A stretch of 56,903 nucleotides of DNA from Candidatus Poseidoniales archaeon (GTDB lineage Archaea > Thermoplasmatota > Poseidoniia > Poseidoniales > Thalassarchaeaceae). Each line of letters begins with the position of its first letter. The first letter of the stretch is position 1. The notes beneath the pieces are model-generated. The model worked only from the letters and a program-made list of their open reading frames with translations, was not told the DNA's origin and did no database searches. The stretch lies in the NCBI GenBank assembly GCA_012959435.1, contig DUDF01000172.1, positions 1 to 56,903 of the forward strand, in the 5' to 3' direction. This document shows positions 33,985-40,889 of this stretch, piece by piece. Position numbers and translations under genes: made by a program.

Positions 33985-35223
33985 ATGGGCGAAAATATTT
34001 TCAACCACTTACTCGGTGATGATAGCCTATTTAAGAACCGCGATGTACTTCACCATGGCTTCACACCTGATAACCTACCACATAGGGAAAATGAGATTAA
34101 AACTTTGGTTCATAATTTAGTTGAAGCACTTCATGGGCAGATGCCTTCCAATATGATACTGTACGGACAACCAGGTTTAGGGAAAACTGCTGTCACTCGT
34201 TATGTCTGTAAACAATTATTAGATCGTGGAAAAGAAATCGGGCGTACAATTAGCGCAGTTGAAGTCAACTGTTGCTCAATTGATACCAAGTATCGTGTAC
34301 TCGCTAAGTTGGCAAATGACCTAGCACCTGATAATGAAAGCCTCGTACCCTTCACCGGATGGCCCACCGATAAAGTTCTTCAACAGCTTCAACAAAATAT
34401 GGAATCACAAGGTGGCGTCCACATCTTTGTATTAGACGAAATTGACCATTTAGTAAAACGGCATGGTGACGACATTCTCTACCCACTTACTAGCCTAAAC
34501 TACGAATTGAGAAATTCTAAGTGTTGTGTAATAGGAATTACAAACGACCTACAATTCACTGAGATGCTTGATGCAAGAATTGCCTCACGACTTGGCTCAG
34601 AAGACTTGGCATTTTCACCGTATAACGCTAGTCAAATTGGAGATATCCTATCCCAACGCGCGCTCGTGGGCGTACGCGAGGGTGTACTTGAGAACGGAGT
34701 CATCAAACTCTGCTCTGCCTTAGCGGCACAAGAACATGGAGATGCGCGGCGCGCATTGGATTTACTGAGAGTTGCCATTCACAAAGCTGATGTCATGGGA
34801 GACAAACTCGTTTCTACAGAACATGTTCGTTTAGCCCAAAATCAATTACAATTTGACCAAATGACTCCAGTAATTTCTAGTCTACCGTTCCATCAAAAGC
34901 TGGTTCTTTACAGCATCCTACTCAATGAGAGTAATGGTTTGACAAATATTTCAACAGGAGAGGTGTTCTCAGTTTACCAAATGACTTGTAATAACGCATC
35001 GGTCACACCACTAGTTTCACGCTCTATTGGAAATGTGATTAAAAATCTCGATAGCCTTGGATTAGTTACGGCCAAAACAACCAGCCTAGGACGTTATGGC
35101 AGAAGTAATAGAATTAATTCTTGCATACCTCAAAACATCAATGCCATAACCATCATGACTGAGGCTGATGAAGCGATGAAACCGGTGGTAAACAGCACAT
35201 ATCGCCTACAAGCAAGGCTTTGA
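33985..35223 (+). CDS. cdc6: Orc1/Cdc6 replication initiator
   Basis: LPHRENEIKTLVHNLVEALHG, MILYGQPGLGKTAVTRYV (Walker A), IFVLDEIDHLV (Walker B), IGITNDLQF, RIASRLGSEDLAFSPY, HGDARRALDLLRVA, C-terminal wHTH region. Confidence 0.95.
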   Translation: MGENIFNHLLGDDSLFKNRDVLHHGFTPDNLPHRENEIKTLVHNLVEALHGQMPSNMILYGQPGLGKTAVTRYVCKQLLDRGKEIGRTISAVEVNCCSIDTKYRVLAKLANDLAPDNESLVPFTGWPTDKVLQQLQQNMESQGGVHIFVLDEIDHLVKRHGDDILYPLTSLNYELRNSKCCVIGITNDLQFTEMLDARIASRLGSEDLAFSPYNASQIGDILSQRALVGVREGVLENGVIKLCSALAAQEHGDARRALDLLRVAIHKADVMGDKLVSTEHVRLAQNQLQFDQMTPVISSLPFHQKLVLYSILLNESNGLTNISTGEVFSVYQMTCNNASVTPLVSRSIGNVIKNLDSLGLVTAKTTSLGRYGRSNRINSCIPQNINAITIMTEADEAMKPVVNSTYRLQARL

Positions 35224-35288
35224 GTACCAAAACCTCGCCAATTCTTCGCTAAGAATTGTTAAGAGAGGGTCGCCGGTCGGCCGCCTTG

Positions 35289-35879
35289 ATGAGCGACGAT
35301 AGTGGAGACAGCGGGAACGAGTCTGTCAGCATGATTGTAGATTGGGTTAAGTCACCAGGCAAGGCGTTTTCATCTCTAGTCTTTGGACTTGGAGTATGGG
35401 GACTAATACTTGGTATCATCAATGTGGTGTTTGGAGCAGTTGTTTCTGGTGAGCGAAAGATCGTTTGGGCTGGATACCTTACAATGGGTTACCTCTGGGA
35501 TGAACCTTACTCCGAGATGATTTATCGACCGTGGTCTGACACCGTATTCTTGGCAATGGCAATTACCGGTATTGCATGGGGAGCCTGGGGGCTTCACCAA
35601 AAAGTAGAGGGCGGATTCCAAGCTTGGATCAAAGGAATTTTCTTTCACCCAATTTGGACTAGCCTAGTTTCTGGGCGTGAAGAAGGTGGAATGACAATGA
35701 CCGCCGCTGCTTGGTGCTTACTACTAGGATTCGGATTCTACACCTATTGGTCAATCGTCCATTGGGCGTGGACTGATGTCGGTGTTTACGCAGTAACAGC
35801 CCCACTCCTTGCATTCGGATTTGGATTGCGCTTCTTGGCATTGATTGATGATAGTGACAGTTTACTATCAGAATCTTGA
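35289..35879 (+). CDS. Multi-TM membrane protein of unknown function
   Basis: Several hydrophobic helices; start MSDDSGDSGNES (ORF track begins 35256). Confidence 0.6.
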   Translation: MSDDSGDSGNESVSMIVDWVKSPGKAFSSLVFGLGVWGLILGIINVVFGAVVSGERKIVWAGYLTMGYLWDEPYSEMIYRPWSDTVFLAMAITGIAWGAWGLHQKVEGGFQAWIKGIFFHPIWTSLVSGREEGGMTMTAAAWCLLLGFGFYTYWSIVHWAWTDVGVYAVTAPLLAFGFGLRFLALIDDSDSLLSES

Positions 35880-35907: not shown

Positions 35908-36843
35908 TTAATGCCCATTCCTACTGAGTATTGCGTCTAAACATCCTTCAAATGTCCCCAACCAAAGGGCTACGCTCCATAACAGATAGTTACGGAAAAT
36001 AATAGCAGATACTAGAATTACTGCTGTTGCGATTACAGGGTCAAGAAAATTTGCGACCGAAACTGATAATGCAGCATATGGAATTAATAGGAATGCAATA
36101 AGCATTCCATCCTTAGAAAAATCGTGTTTCACTCCACGGTATTTTCTCATTATTCGTGTGTGTGCGCGGGCATCTCTACGACGCTTTTGAAGAAATATTT
36201 TGAGACGGCTCTCCGCTACATGGTCCACGACTGCTTCCGGCTCATATCGAATACTCCCTCCAGATTGTATTATTTTCATTGAGACCTCCATGTCCTCTGC
36301 ATGATACCAAGATGGGTCAAAGCCGCCTCGTGAAATGAGACGCTCTCTCCTGAACATTGAACATGGGCCATTAGCCAAAGTAGTTTTATCTGAACGTGAT
36401 GAGTATTTCCAAGCAATGGTACGAGACCGCAATCTGCTGACCGAAGTTCTACCTTCGTCAAAGATAACTCTGCCCGTTACAGCATCCACCCCGTCACTTG
36501 AGGTAAACATCCTCTCAAGCCAATCTGGTCTTGGGCGACAATCAATGTCAGTTATCGCTACCCACTCTCCCTTTGCAATGTTTAGTGCCTTGTTCCTACC
36601 TGCAGACAGACCCAGCGGTTCTTGTGAAAGAATTTGAATAGGAATCCCGTCAGAAGAATCATCTTCTGAGATTTGCCATTTTTGAAGTAGCTCATTGCTT
36701 CCATCTGTTGAGCCGTCATCAACAGCGATGATTTCCAGCGGCCGGTATGTTTGAGCGCATAATGCAGTCATGCAATCGTCAACCCAGTGTGCTCCGTTAC
36801 GAACACAAACTGTGATGCTAATTAGTGGAGAAGTCACTCTCAC
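35908..36843 (-). CDS. Family 2 glycosyltransferase
   Basis: ISITVCVRNGAHWVDDCMTALCAQTYRPLEIIAVDDGSTDGS, AGRNKALNIAKGEWVAITDIDCRP; C-terminal TM helices. Confidence 0.92.
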   Translation of the reverse strand: MRVTSPLISITVCVRNGAHWVDDCMTALCAQTYRPLEIIAVDDGSTDGSNELLQKWQISEDDSSDGIPIQILSQEPLGLSAGRNKALNIAKGEWVAITDIDCRPRPDWLERMFTSSDGVDAVTGRVIFDEGRTSVSRLRSRTIAWKYSSRSDKTTLANGPCSMFRRERLISRGGFDPSWYHAEDMEVSMKIIQSGGSIRYEPEAVVDHVAESRLKIFLQKRRRDARAHTRIMRKYRGVKHDFSKDGMLIAFLLIPYAALSVSVANFLDPVIATAVILVSAIIFRNYLLWSVALWLGTFEGCLDAILSRNGH

Positions 36844-37856
36844 AGCTCCTTAGTGAATACATCAAGAAGTCTACGGCAATTTTCTTTGGTCTCTTGGCTA
36901 GTAATCCTGACGACAACCCCTTTTCCTGGTTGACCATATATTACAGCACAACCTATTGGAGCGAGTAAGTGAACAATGATGGGCGCTAAGTCCTCTTCAC
37001 CATTTACCACAATAAGAGTTGGGCGGCTATTCAAGAGTGCTACCTTTGTAGTTAATTTCAAGTCTGCAGTGATGAGCCCTGGGGGATTTGAACAAGTTGA
37101 TAGATGTGCAAATAATTCTCTGTCAAGGTTTTCTGCTTCAGCCCAAATCTCACGCTTTGTCATTCCGTCGATGAACGATATGTCTGGAATCTCTCCCATG
37201 TCAACTAATGTTTGTACAGTAACATCTCCGACAGCAATCAATTTTGGTGATGACTCTGAAATTGAGGCAATGGCTCTTCGCATCGCTACTTCAGGCCTTG
37301 ACTCGGGTCCTTCATGAAGGGTTCCAAATGGTTGTTTTAATTCGTCGTCTAAGATTTCTGGCATTCGCTGGTCAAGGTACATCTCAGCCTCTCCGAGCCA
37401 AGGCTGACCTTGACGGTCAATTTCACCATCTCGTATTCTGCTTGAAGAAATGATTTCACCAGCCGGCCCCACAATATGTTCTACCACAATAATACTCAAA
37501 GGAGGCAAGTCTCCACGTTTTCTTGAACTATTGATCTCTTCACATGCAGGTTTGGTTTCAGGGGTGCATCCTATCGAATCGGCCTCTAAACTAGTTGAGG
37601 CGGGGCCTACTTCATTCTCTAATAAATGAATAGATACCCGATCATTACCATCTTCAGAAACCACCCAATCCAAAATGTCTTTTTTACGGGTGTCCCAATC
37701 TAAAACAATCGAGGTTTTTAATTGGGCCATATTATCGCTTGTCAGCCATATCTGAACCTTGTCAGATTGTTCCAAACAAGTAGTGATAAGATGATGATGG
37801 CCAGCATGAAGGCGGTCAAATGTGCCACCTAGTAAACACAGTGAGTGCCTTCCCAT
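36840..37856 (-). CDS. Fused pantetheine-phosphate adenylyltransferase + GTP-dependent dephospho-CoA kinase (DUF359)
   Basis: LCLLGGTFDRLHAGHHHLI (PPAT), then KLIAVGDVTVQTLVDMG...GLITADL...LIVVNGEEDLAPIIVHLLAPIGCAVIYGQPGKGVVV (DUF359 motifs). Preferred start MGRHSL. Confidence 0.85.
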   Translation of the reverse strand: MGRHSLCLLGGTFDRLHAGHHHLITTCLEQSDKVQIWLTSDNMAQLKTSIVLDWDTRKKDILDWVVSEDGNDRVSIHLLENEVGPASTSLEADSIGCTPETKPACEEINSSRKRGDLPPLSIIVVEHIVGPAGEIISSSRIRDGEIDRQGQPWLGEAEMYLDQRMPEILDDELKQPFGTLHEGPESRPEVAMRRAIASISESSPKLIAVGDVTVQTLVDMGEIPDISFIDGMTKREIWAEAENLDRELFAHLSTCSNPPGLITADLKLTTKVALLNSRPTLIVVNGEEDLAPIIVHLLAPIGCAVIYGQPGKGVVVRITSQETKENCRRLLDVFTKEL

Positions 37857-37917
37857 TAAAACATCTGAGAGGTTGAACCCCAATCAAACCTACGGATAAA
37901 AAGAAGATGAAAAATGT

Positions 37918-38185
37918 GCCCCGGGGAGTAACGAACCGCCTCATCGCTTTTGGCTTGGAGGTTCTGACCCACCCCGGGGCGTCTGTCGGACAAGTGGGTG
38001 GTTCCAGTAGTCATTCCGCGCACAGCAGTCGTATGGAGACCTTCTCGCCCTGCCGCCATTTTGCACCGAGGTTCATTCCCCGAAGGGTCACCACGGCCTT
38101 CGAAGGCGGCGATACCCCGCACTTGGTACCACAGTTCATCCCTCGCCGGCGAAGGCCAAGGTCCGTGTGGTGTTGCAGCCGGGGC
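37918..38185 (-). ncRNA. Candidate structured non-coding RNA (~268 nt), identity unresolved
   Basis: No credible CDS; GC-rich with terminal pairing GCCCCGG (38185-38179) / CCGGGGC (37924-37918), plus a 9-bp stem GCCCCGGGG/CCCCGGGGC closing 37918-37980. TATA-like CATATAAG upstream on minus strand and T-rich stretch after the 3' end. Strand is tentative. Confidence 0.55.
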
Positions 38186-38237
38186 AAACTTTTGGGTAAA
38201 ACCACCCCTTTTGAATCCTCTTATATGTGGGAAAGTG

Positions 38238-40889
38238 TCATAATCGCCGCTGAGATGACTCTCTGAGTCCATCGTGGTAACCACTTTTTCCCGCTGCTAA
38301 TCGTGCAGCAACTTCGGAGTTCCCGCTGATAATTTCAGTAGCAGTGAAGGATGGCCACCTCTCGCGAGGTTGTAACAACCATCCAACCATTGGATGGATT
38401 TGTCCTACAACTGGTTTAGTACCGATAAGAATTGACTTCAACGCATTTAGAATGTCAGTCAACTCAGCAAACCCCTGTAACTCCACATCAATATCAACCC
38501 CCTGAAGAATTCTCTCCAAACGGGATACAAGGTCAGAGGGGCAACCTGGGTGTTCAATCGCACCTATTCCAGGAATAGTATGTATCTCACCGATTGGACG
38601 GAATAGAGCAGACGCCCATGGAATGTTCTCTCCAATAAGCATCTCACGTCCCTCTACTCCTTCAGTAATTGTGGTGAATAATTGTGGTGAAAATGGAGCC
38701 CACCATTCAATGGGTAATGATGTGATTCCCCTAATTTCTTCAATCGTTGGAGTTCTATCATCTCTCACTGTCGAGAGCAATGATATCCAGCCATTAATGA
38801 TAGGTGATGATCTTTGAGATGTCTCAATATCCCTTGCCCAACTATCATCTAATTCTCCTTGAGAAGATAGCCAAGTCAAACCCGTTAAAGCAGGAATTAT
38901 ATTTGATGGGAGAGATTTAGATATGCTTTTTGGGGCCCAACGAGCCAAATCAGAAGCAAGTTCGGGTGGTAACCATGCAACCTGGGAAAGTAAGGTAGAA
39001 GTTAGCCATGCCGAGGCAACATCATTGAAGTGATGTGAATCGATTAGAGTTCTCAACCTCAATGCTAAATCATCTTCATTACGAATCCTTTGTACCAGAT
39101 AATTGTGAGCCAACTCCTGCCAATCATAGGGCGCACTTCCTGCAACTTCTGCTAGAAATTCTATCGGGACTTTTTGTACAGGTAGCAGTGAAATCCAATC
39201 AACACCCAACCGATTACCTTGACGACGCCACAATGGCCAACGATTATCATCAGGACAAGCAATCCATGCCGCTAATGGATCAACTGATTCTATTCTATCA
39301 GCCCAATCAGCATCACCTTCTGGATAACGGAGTGATGCAGCAAACAATCTCATTTCTTCAGATGATTCTTCGGATGCATTTGGTGGCGCAGATGCACCAG
39401 CCGCAAGTCTCGCTGCTGCAACGACCCCACTTAGGGCGGAAGCAGAATGGGGAGGCACCCAAAGTGGTGGAGGAGATGTGAAACTAGGTGGTGGGCGATG
39501 GGATACCTTGCATGGTAATTCAACATCCCCAGCCAATTTCAAGAGGTACCAAGAAAGGGGGCGGATTGGATCGGGCCTAAGCGTGGGGTACGCCAGCGGT
39601 TCTTCGGGTTCTTGAGAGAGTATTGCGAGTCTAGTCCTAGGGTCTCGGAAAACTGAATGCAATTGCCCTGAATCATGTTGACCTGGAGGATATTGCAAAA
39701 CTACAGGAGTTGTTTCTTGTCGCGACAAAGACCAATCTATCAGAGAAAGCCAAGCTGTAGATGATAATCCTTGGACATCAATAATAGTATTCTCTACCTC
39801 GGTTTTTTTGCTCCATTGATGATTTGACCAATCTGATTGAAAACGTCTCCAAGTCGATTCTTCAACCCTAATGTTACCACTTCGTTTGCGGCGCCCTTTG
39901 CGAATTGCTTGAGTCAATCCTTGTAATCGGTGTTGACGCTCTTTTTCCGTAAGACGTGGGTGAGCGCGATTAATCCATGAATCAAGAATTGAAAGGGGCA
40001 GGGCATCGCCTTGGCGTCCTAAAAGTGATGCTTCCGCAATTACTAGAGCCCCGTTTGAAGCCGCTGAAAGTATAGTTGTTGTTGAAAGCCGGTCGGGCAA
40101 GATTGCACAAATAGGACATTGTGATTGAAGAGGCGAAACTGATTCATGGGCTGTCCCAAGGGTCCATGATTCTGATTCACCCATTGGCATTGGGAGGTCT
40201 GGCCACCTATCTACTGGTGGTTCACCAAACCAACTTCCAATTGCTAATTTTAGAGATTGACGCGGATCCAATAATCGAGCGCGAACTAATCCAATCACCG
40301 GTGCTGGTTCTACCCAATCAGACAATGAGGTTGTAGATTGTTCATCAGAAGGTGCGGCAACCTGCTCAAAAGATTCTAAATCGTACCATCTCACTTCTGC
40401 CTCACGTGCAACCGCCCAAACATATTCCTCCTTCACCCCTTGGATTCCACTAGAGATTACTGTTTGGTCGGAATGACTGAAACCCCCACCCCAAGGTAAT
40501 GGGATGAGGGGGCTAGAGAGAGGTTTCGTGTAAGCAAGAAGAAGTTGAGGGCCATTTTTTGCAAGTAATTTCCCAATAGCGTGTTCGGGAATTGAATCAA
40601 TGCTGCTATCAGCTAATCTAGCCAATTCATCACCAATGAAAACCTGCCAACCAGTAGCGGTGAGATGCTGTTTCGCACCTCTTTGCCCTGGTCCAGAATC
40701 TGACTGAATCAGGCCCTCCTCCCTCATTCTCTTCAATTCTGCAGATGCATGAGGCAAGCGTAGACCAACTGCTTTACTTGATCCAGTGACAGTTGATGGA
40801 CCGTCGGAAAGATGGCCCAATAACCTCCGCCTGTAACTGCCGCGGATTCGTGAAAAAGTCACCGGATTTCCACTCTTGGCCATGACCAT
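38238..40889 (-). CDS. Large hypothetical protein with N-terminal winged-helix domain
   Basis: GSYRRRLLGHLSDGPSTVTGSSKAVGLRLPHASAELKRMREEGLIQSDSGPGQRGAKQHLTATGWQVFIG resembles an ArsR/MarR-type wHTH; remainder unrecognised. Confidence 0.7.
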   Translation of the reverse strand: MVMAKSGNPVTFSRIRGSYRRRLLGHLSDGPSTVTGSSKAVGLRLPHASAELKRMREEGLIQSDSGPGQRGAKQHLTATGWQVFIGDELARLADSSIDSIPEHAIGKLLAKNGPQLLLAYTKPLSSPLIPLPWGGGFSHSDQTVISSGIQGVKEEYVWAVAREAEVRWYDLESFEQVAAPSDEQSTTSLSDWVEPAPVIGLVRARLLDPRQSLKLAIGSWFGEPPVDRWPDLPMPMGESESWTLGTAHESVSPLQSQCPICAILPDRLSTTTILSAASNGALVIAEASLLGRQGDALPLSILDSWINRAHPRLTEKERQHRLQGLTQAIRKGRRKRSGNIRVEESTWRRFQSDWSNHQWSKKTEVENTIIDVQGLSSTAWLSLIDWSLSRQETTPVVLQYPPGQHDSGQLHSVFRDPRTRLAILSQEPEEPLAYPTLRPDPIRPLSWYLLKLAGDVELPCKVSHRPPPSFTSPPPLWVPPHSASALSGVVAAARLAAGASAPPNASEESSEEMRLFAASLRYPEGDADWADRIESVDPLAAWIACPDDNRWPLWRRQGNRLGVDWISLLPVQKVPIEFLAEVAGSAPYDWQELAHNYLVQRIRNEDDLALRLRTLIDSHHFNDVASAWLTSTLLSQVAWLPPELASDLARWAPKSISKSLPSNIIPALTGLTWLSSQGELDDSWARDIETSQRSSPIINGWISLLSTVRDDRTPTIEEIRGITSLPIEWWAPFSPQLFTTITEGVEGREMLIGENIPWASALFRPIGEIHTIPGIGAIEHPGCPSDLVSRLERILQGVDIDVELQGFAELTDILNALKSILIGTKPVVGQIHPMVGWLLQPRERWPSFTATEIISGNSEVAARLAAGKSGYHDGLRESSQRRL

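What the first reader, a model, noticed from the sequence alone, without database searches (positions are those of the whole stretch)
37918..38185. Candidate stable structured RNA between the PPAT/DPCK gene and an 883-aa gene
GC-rich non-coding stretch in an otherwise AT-leaning region. The ends pair (GCCCCGG/CCGGGGC) and a 9-bp stem closes a ~63-nt subdomain. Size and terminal helix fit RNase P RNA or SRP RNA, but I could not find the diagnostic motifs of either (GAGGAAAGUCC/ACAGAA, or the SRP helix 8 GGAAG/AGCA), so it may be a divergent version or a different RNA.
Basis: partly seen in the sequence, partly recalled or inferred. Interest (0 to 1): 0.62.

Follow-up and report, generated by a model that had tools for sequence, protein, structure and literature searches.

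The report
Four-hairpin H/ACA pseudouridylation guide RNA
The stretch encodes, on the minus strand, a small RNA of four hairpins that marine Poseidoniales archaea very probably use to tell an enzyme which uridines at the heart of the ribosome to convert to pseudouridine; it is a previously unlisted four-unit version of a known kind of guide RNA, neither RNase P RNA nor SRP RNA.

Summary
It is not RNase P RNA or SRP RNA; both sit elsewhere in this genome with strong Rfam hits. It is an archaeal box H/ACA guide RNA of four hairpins, each with an internal guide pocket and a kink-turn. It is conserved in 29 aligned Poseidoniales loci from two families, with strong covariation (26 of 43 pairs compensated). 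Hairpins 2-4 correspond to the three-hairpin guide HgcG/Pab40/Pf7, although the Rfam score is below the gathering cut-off (34.6 of 77 bits, E 7e-8). Hairpin 1 is an extra 5' unit: a model of it matches 78 of 82 genomes of the order and 0 of 211 other Thermoplasmatota. ACA boxes follow hairpins 3 and 4 in 29 of 29 sequences but hairpins 1 and 2 in only 2 of 29 each. Predicted targets lie in the peptidyl-transferase centre and helix 69 of 23S rRNA: U1915 (HP4), U2496 (HP2), U2586 or U2555 (HP3) and, weakly, U2606 (HP1; E. coli numbering). No expression or modification data were available.

The parts
37915..38187 (-). whole predicted four-hairpin H/ACA-type guide RNA (exact ends inferred)
   Evidence: RF00064 sub-threshold hit 37919-38110 minus; homologs in 42 of 59 relatives; alignment of 29; covariation
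38113..38186 (-). hairpin 1 (HP1), extra 5' unit limited to Poseidoniales in the genomes searched; no conserved ACA box
   Evidence: model R1 hits 78 of 82 genomes of the order and 0 of 211 outside it; ANA box in 2 of 29
38172..38178 (-). HP1 5' guide strand CUGCAAC (GCAAC invariant)
38122..38127 (-). HP1 3' guide strand ACCAAG (ACCA invariant)
   Evidence: best rRNA site is Ec U2606
38134..38165 (-). HP1 kink-turn elements (GGAUGA 3' side, CGGACC 5' side) and apical part
   Evidence: sequence; invariant UGA and GA in alignment A1; coordinates
38052..38110 (-). hairpin 2 (HP2), counterpart of Pab40.1 / Pf7 stem I; ACA box lost in this order
   Evidence: HgcG model positions from 58 onward align here; box absent in 27 of 29 but matched in 28 of 30 loci outside the order
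38098..38104 (-). HP2 5' guide UUCGAAG
   Evidence: pairs with CUUCGA 3' of Ec U2496
38059..38064 (-). HP2 3' guide GCAAAA
   Evidence: pairs with UUGC 5' of Ec U2496
37988..38050 (-). hairpin 3 (HP3), counterpart of Pf7 stem II
   Evidence: PMC2584109 for Pf7 stem II
38038..38043 (-). HP3 5' guide AAGGUC (GGUC invariant)
37995..38002 (-). HP3 3' guide ACCACCCA
37984..37986 (-). box ACA of HP3
   Evidence: 29 of 29 homologs
37965..37971 (-). HP4 5' guide UGGGUCA (invariant)
   Evidence: pairs with UGACCC 3' of Ec U1915
37927..37932 (-). HP4 3' guide GUUACU (GUUAC invariant)
   Evidence: pairs with GUAAC 5' of Ec U1915
37915..37917 (-). box ACA of HP4, presumed 3' end of the RNA
   Evidence: 29 of 29; a U-rich stretch follows in the window
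36840..37883 (-). downstream gene: phosphopantetheine adenylyltransferase-like domain fused to DUF359
   Evidence: Pfam PF01467 and PF04019; PPAT motif 48-137 nt downstream of the RNA in 27 of 29 homologous loci

Best explanation
The minus strand encodes an archaeal H/ACA-type guide RNA of about 273 nt with four consecutive units. Each unit is a hairpin whose lower and upper stems flank a guide pocket, with a kink-turn in the upper stem. By analogy with studied archaeal H/ACA RNPs (inferred), L7Ae binds each kink-turn and Cbf5 with Nop10 binds the hairpin. The two pocket strands pair with 23S rRNA on both sides of a U-N dinucleotide, and Cbf5 isomerises that U to pseudouridine. HP4 guides U1915 in helix 69, HP2 guides U2496, HP3 guides U2586 (or U2555) and HP1 tentatively guides U2606; all but U1915 lie in the peptidyl-transferase region. 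Hairpins 2-4 descend from the three-hairpin HgcG/Pab40/Pf7 guide. The Poseidoniales added HP1 at the 5' end and lost the ACA box of HP2. Shown here: structure, conservation, homology and complementarity. Inferred: transcription, protein binding and the modifications.
For: RF00064 HgcG hit on the minus strand, 34.6 bits, E 7.4e-8. 29 homologs with four hairpins, near-invariant pockets and kink-turn residues. Covariation: 26 of 43 pairs with both-side changes, score 0.429 against 0.173 +/- 0.009 shuffled and at most 0.104 when slid. ACA box 29/29 for HP3 and for HP4. Each pocket's best 23S site is reached by at most 1 of 100 pocket shuffles; the sites map to Ec 1915, 2496, 2555/2586 and 2606. 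HP4 and HP2 correspond to Pab40.3 and Pab40.1, whose targets L2016 and L2588 are given in PMC4652768; the Haloferax homologs of Pf7 stems II and III are proposed to guide Ec 2586 and Ec 1915/1917 (PMC2584109). Cbf5 and Nop10 are in the genome. RNase P and SRP RNA lie elsewhere. The pattern ACAGACGYCCCGGGGTGGGTCAG finds 82 stretches; the titles are marine group II or generic Euryarchaeota/Thermoplasmata, and the extra hairpin is present in 73 of the 80 scanned, the other 7 holding little upstream sequence.
Against: Score is below Rfam's gathering cut-off (34.6 against 77 bits). HP1 and HP2 lack a conserved ACA box (2 of 29 each). The HP1 target has only a 3-bp 5' duplex, weaker than the rule given for validated Pyrococcus guides. 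HP3 fits two sites. Gar1 was not found (the genome is 77% complete). Fold energy alone is unremarkable. No transcript data.
Confidence: 0.95

Rival explanations
1. A divergent RNase P RNA or SRP RNA.
For: Size of about 270 nt and a possible terminal helix in the window.
Against: Both RNAs found elsewhere in the same genome over cut-off; no hit here to either family even at E up to 10; terminal helix complete in only 5 of 29 homologs.
Confidence: 0.005
2. Only hairpins 2-4 act as H/ACA guides; HP1 is an H/ACA-like hairpin with another role, for instance RNA stability, L7Ae recruitment or regulation of the downstream coaD gene.
For: HP1 has no ACA box; its best rRNA site has only a 3-bp 5' duplex; coaD lies 48-137 nt downstream in 27 of 29 loci.
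Against: HP1 keeps an invariant pocket (GCAAC/ACCA) and kink-turn while its stems covary, as expected of a guide; its rRNA site beats all 100 pocket shuffles; the RNA ends at an ACA box before coaD.
Confidence: 0.25
3. A cis-acting leader or riboswitch-like element of the coaD gene rather than a trans-acting guide.
For: Conserved synteny with coaD in both families of the order.
Against: Outside the order the homologous three-hairpin RNA shows no PPAT motif downstream (0 of 30); pockets match conserved rRNA sites; homology to HgcG.
Confidence: 0.03

Closest known systems
HgcG / Pab40 / Pf7 (Rfam RF00064), three-hairpin H/ACA guide of Thermococcales; relatives Afu4 and the Haloferax guide
   Same: Order and pockets of hairpins 2-4; kink-turns; HP4 predicted on the same site as Pab40.3 (Ec 1915) and HP2 on that of Pab40.1 (Pab L2588, mapped here to Ec 2496); [quoted passage not shown]
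   Different: An additional 5' hairpin; ACA box missing after HP1 and HP2; below the RF00064 gathering score.
H/ACA guide hairpins of Haloferax volcanii (HP1 and HP2 of PMC2584109)
   Same: Homologs of Pf7 stems II and III, proposed for Ec 2586 and Ec 1915/1917.
   Different: In Haloferax two hairpins separated by a long spacer; here four adjacent units.
H/ACA-like guides of Pyrobaculum
   Same: Deviations from the canonical motif while a guide pocket and kink-turn remain (PMC4652768).
   Different: From general knowledge, there the deviation is chiefly in the lower stem; here the lower stems of HP1 and HP2 are present and the ACA box is what is missing.

Membership tests
archaeal box H/ACA guide RNA | hairpin of lower and upper stem around an internal guide pocket | tested here: met
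   All four units; covariation 26 of 43 pairs; lower stems of HP2 and HP3 checked sequence by sequence
archaeal box H/ACA guide RNA | kink-turn (or kink-loop) in the upper stem for L7Ae | tested here: met
   Invariant UGA opposite GA in the four units of 29 sequences, except an HP4 GA-to-AA change in the window and three relatives
archaeal box H/ACA guide RNA | ACA (ANA) box about 14-16 nt 3' of the pocket | tested here: inconclusive
   HP3 and HP4 met, 29/29 each; HP1 and HP2 not met, 2/29 each
archaeal box H/ACA guide RNA | pocket complementary to a target on both sides of a U-N | tested here: met
   HP2 and HP4 clear, HP3 with two possible sites, HP1 weak
archaeal box H/ACA guide RNA | core proteins encoded in the genome | tested here: inconclusive
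   Cbf5 and Nop10 found; Gar1 not found in a 77% complete genome; L7Ae not searched
archaeal box H/ACA guide RNA | expressed, bound by Cbf5/L7Ae, directs modification | not testable with these tools
   no transcriptome or modification data
HgcG (RF00064) | score at or above the gathering cut-off of 77 bits | tested here: not met
   34.6 bits, E 7.4e-8
HgcG (RF00064) | three adjacent hairpins with pockets for the HgcG target sites | tested here: met
   HP2, HP3 and HP4 in that order; RF00064 hits in 48 of 293 Thermoplasmatota genomes show the same pockets
RNase P RNA (RF00373) | match to the archaeal RNase P model | tested here: not met
   no hit in the region; the genome's copy is on contig C145
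SRP RNA (RF01857) | match to the archaeal SRP model | tested here: not met
   no hit in the region; the genome's copy is on contig C130

The most novel reading that the evidence does not exclude
A four-unit H/ACA guide RNA, more than the one to three stem-loops described for archaea in the papers read, in which the two 5' units work without an ACA box, and whose order-specific first unit directs a pseudouridine at Ec 2606 near A2602 of the peptidyl-transferase centre.
Probability: 0.3. Interest if true: 0.5.

Novelty: new variant of a known kind. Interest (0 to 1): 0.38.

Why it matters
Poseidoniales (marine group II) are common, uncultivated surface-ocean archaea. The finding gives testable pseudouridine sites at their ribosome's catalytic centre, explains a conserved unannotated gene next to coaD, shows an H/ACA guide that grew by one unit in one order, and poses a concrete question: how Cbf5 handles guide hairpins that lack an ACA box while keeping pocket and kink-turn. 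It also shows that Rfam's HgcG model misses this order at its cut-off.

Tried and rejected
RNase P and SRP RNA rejected. Plus strand rejected: fold z +0.59. Terminal helix rejected: full in 5 of 29 homologs. Weak Rfam hits TB11Cs5H3, Chlorobi-RRM, Pab160, snoZ185, U8 and isrG treated as chance or as echoes of the H/ACA shape. A hand-drawn structure on the MAFFT alignment misplaced the lower stems of HP2 and HP3, so the RNAalifold structure was counted instead. A first rRNA target scan with loose registers was noisy; fixed pocket registers were used later, and these were partly chosen after the sites had been seen, so the shuffle fractions are optimistic, above all for HP3. The idea that a U at Ec 2606 is peculiar to the order was rejected: the site is the same in nearly all Thermoplasmatota fetched. 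A first alignment of 23S loci mixed strands and was redone. tRNA targets for HP1 were not scanned. A phylum-wide 23S family search gave no answer and was replaced by a DNA search.

Full report
Observation. The stretch 37918-38185 is non-coding between a PPAT-like/DUF359 gene (Pfam PF01467 and PF04019) and an 883-aa ORF, both on the minus strand. At gathering thresholds Rfam finds only a tRNA in the whole window. With relaxed thresholds the minus strand of 37919-38110 matches HgcG (RF00064, an H/ACA guide RNA) at 34.6 bits, E 7.4e-8. Fold energy does not single the region out (z -1.17 for the minus strand, +0.59 for the plus strand), but the minus-strand fold is four separate hairpins.

Not RNase P or SRP RNA. 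The same genome carries an RNase P RNA at 209.1 bits and an SRP RNA at 130.1 bits, and neither family matches here even at E up to 10.

Conservation and structure. The sequence is found by BLAST in 42 of 59 relatives. Twenty-nine complete homologs from two families were aligned. RNAalifold predicts 43 pairs, 26 of them with compensatory changes. The covariation score is 0.429 against 0.173 +/- 0.009 in shuffles and at most 0.104 with slid partners. In every hairpin the pocket strands and the kink-turn residues are near-invariant while the stems vary: GCAAC/ACCA in HP1, CGAAG/GCAA in HP2, GGUC/AC-N-ACC in HP3, UGGGUCA/GUUAC in HP4. This is the signature of guide units rather than of one ribozyme-like fold.

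Boxes. An ANA box stands 12-17 nt after the start of the 3' guide in 29 of 29 sequences for HP3 and HP4, but only in 2 of 29 for HP1 and 2 of 29 for HP2. In 30 RF00064 loci of other Thermoplasmatota the HP2 box pattern is matched in 28 (the box part of this pattern is loose, and a random sequence would meet it roughly one time in six).

Evolution. A covariance model of HP1 matches 78 genomes of the own order, of 82 searched there, and none of the 211 genomes outside it. A 23-base pattern across the HP3 box and the start of HP4 occurs in 82 stretches of the GTDB collection. Their titles name marine group II, Poseidoniales, Thalassarchaeaceae or generic Euryarchaeota and Thermoplasmata, and 73 of the 80 scanned hold HP1, the other seven having little upstream sequence. 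Titles among the nearest relatives of the window name Thalassarchaeaceae or Poseidoniales. The simplest reading is that an ancestral three-hairpin HgcG-like guide gained a fourth hairpin at its 5' end in this order and lost the ACA box of what is now the second hairpin. The gene lies 48-137 nt upstream of the PPAT motif in 27 of 29 loci of the order and in none of the 30 outside.

Targets. With pockets defined in all 29 guides, the best site in the 23S and 16S rRNA was sought and compared with 100 column shuffles of the pockets. HP4: 30.4 against a null maximum of 23.8, site GUAAC-U-A-UGACCC, Ec U1915. HP2: 27.3 against 21.9, site UUGC-U-A-CUUCGA, Ec 2496. HP1: 21.4 against 17.9, site GGU-U-U-GUUGC, Ec 2606. 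HP3: 25.0 for Ec 2555 or 20.3 for Ec 2586, depending on register. E. coli numbers come from an alignment with rrlB. HP4 and HP2 match Pab40.3 (target L2016, equivalent to Ec 1915) and Pab40.1 (target L2588; mapping to Ec 2496 is inferred here) (PMC4652768; PMC2584109). For HP3 the literature favours Ec 2586: PMC2584109 assigns the Haloferax homolog of Pf7 stem II to psi2621 of H. marismortui, Ec 2586. In the window's own genus the Ec 2586 pairing is the better kept, whereas several relatives pair perfectly with the Ec 2555 site. [quoted passage not shown]

Machinery. Cbf5 (314 bits) and Nop10 (49 bits) are present. Gar1 was not found; the assembly is 77% complete. L7Ae was not searched.

Known or new. 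Reviews and surveys read here state that archaeal H/ACA RNAs have one, two or three stem-loops (PMC2584109; PMC7991803). A four-unit RNA with two box-less units is therefore a variant of a known kind. No report of it in Poseidoniales was found in the held library, which is not a complete search of the literature. It is not filed as a formal RF00064 member because it misses the gathering score, though homology to HgcG is well supported.

Limits. No transcript or pseudouridine data. Pocket registers were partly chosen after the sites had been seen. The own 23S sequence holds a run of N in the peptidyl-transferase region, so relatives' sequences, identical at the sites, were used.

Noticed in passing
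36840-37883 (-): PPAT-like nucleotidyltransferase domain fused to DUF359; a PPAT gene sits directly downstream of the guide RNA throughout the order.
   Followed up: partly
38238-40889 (-): 883-aa ORF upstream of the RNA with no Pfam match at E 0.001.
   Followed up: no
35256-35879 (+): 207-aa ORF with hydrophobic stretches and no Pfam match, next to an Orc1/Cdc6 gene (33985-35223).
   Followed up: no
38190-38240 (-): Upstream of the RNA a TTCAAAAGGGG-like element recurs about 30 nt before HP1 in many homologs (variants TTGAAAAGGGG, GGGTTCTTGA); the window also has CATATAAG further upstream. Possible promoter element.
   Followed up: no
37953-37958 (-): Window and three relatives (L008, L010, L011) carry CCAAGC instead of CCGAGC at the HP4 kink-turn, replacing the G of one sheared pair.
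   Followed up: partly
L044, 23S rRNA positions about 2510-2554: The own genome's 23S gene has a run of N in the conserved peptidyl-transferase region and is 22 nt longer than relatives there; an assembly gap or a masked stretch.
   Followed up: no
38343-38400 (-): Weak Chlorobi-RRM match (22.8 bits, E 0.034) inside the 883-aa ORF, around the hairpin CAUCCAAUGGUUGGAUG; probably chance.
   Followed up: no
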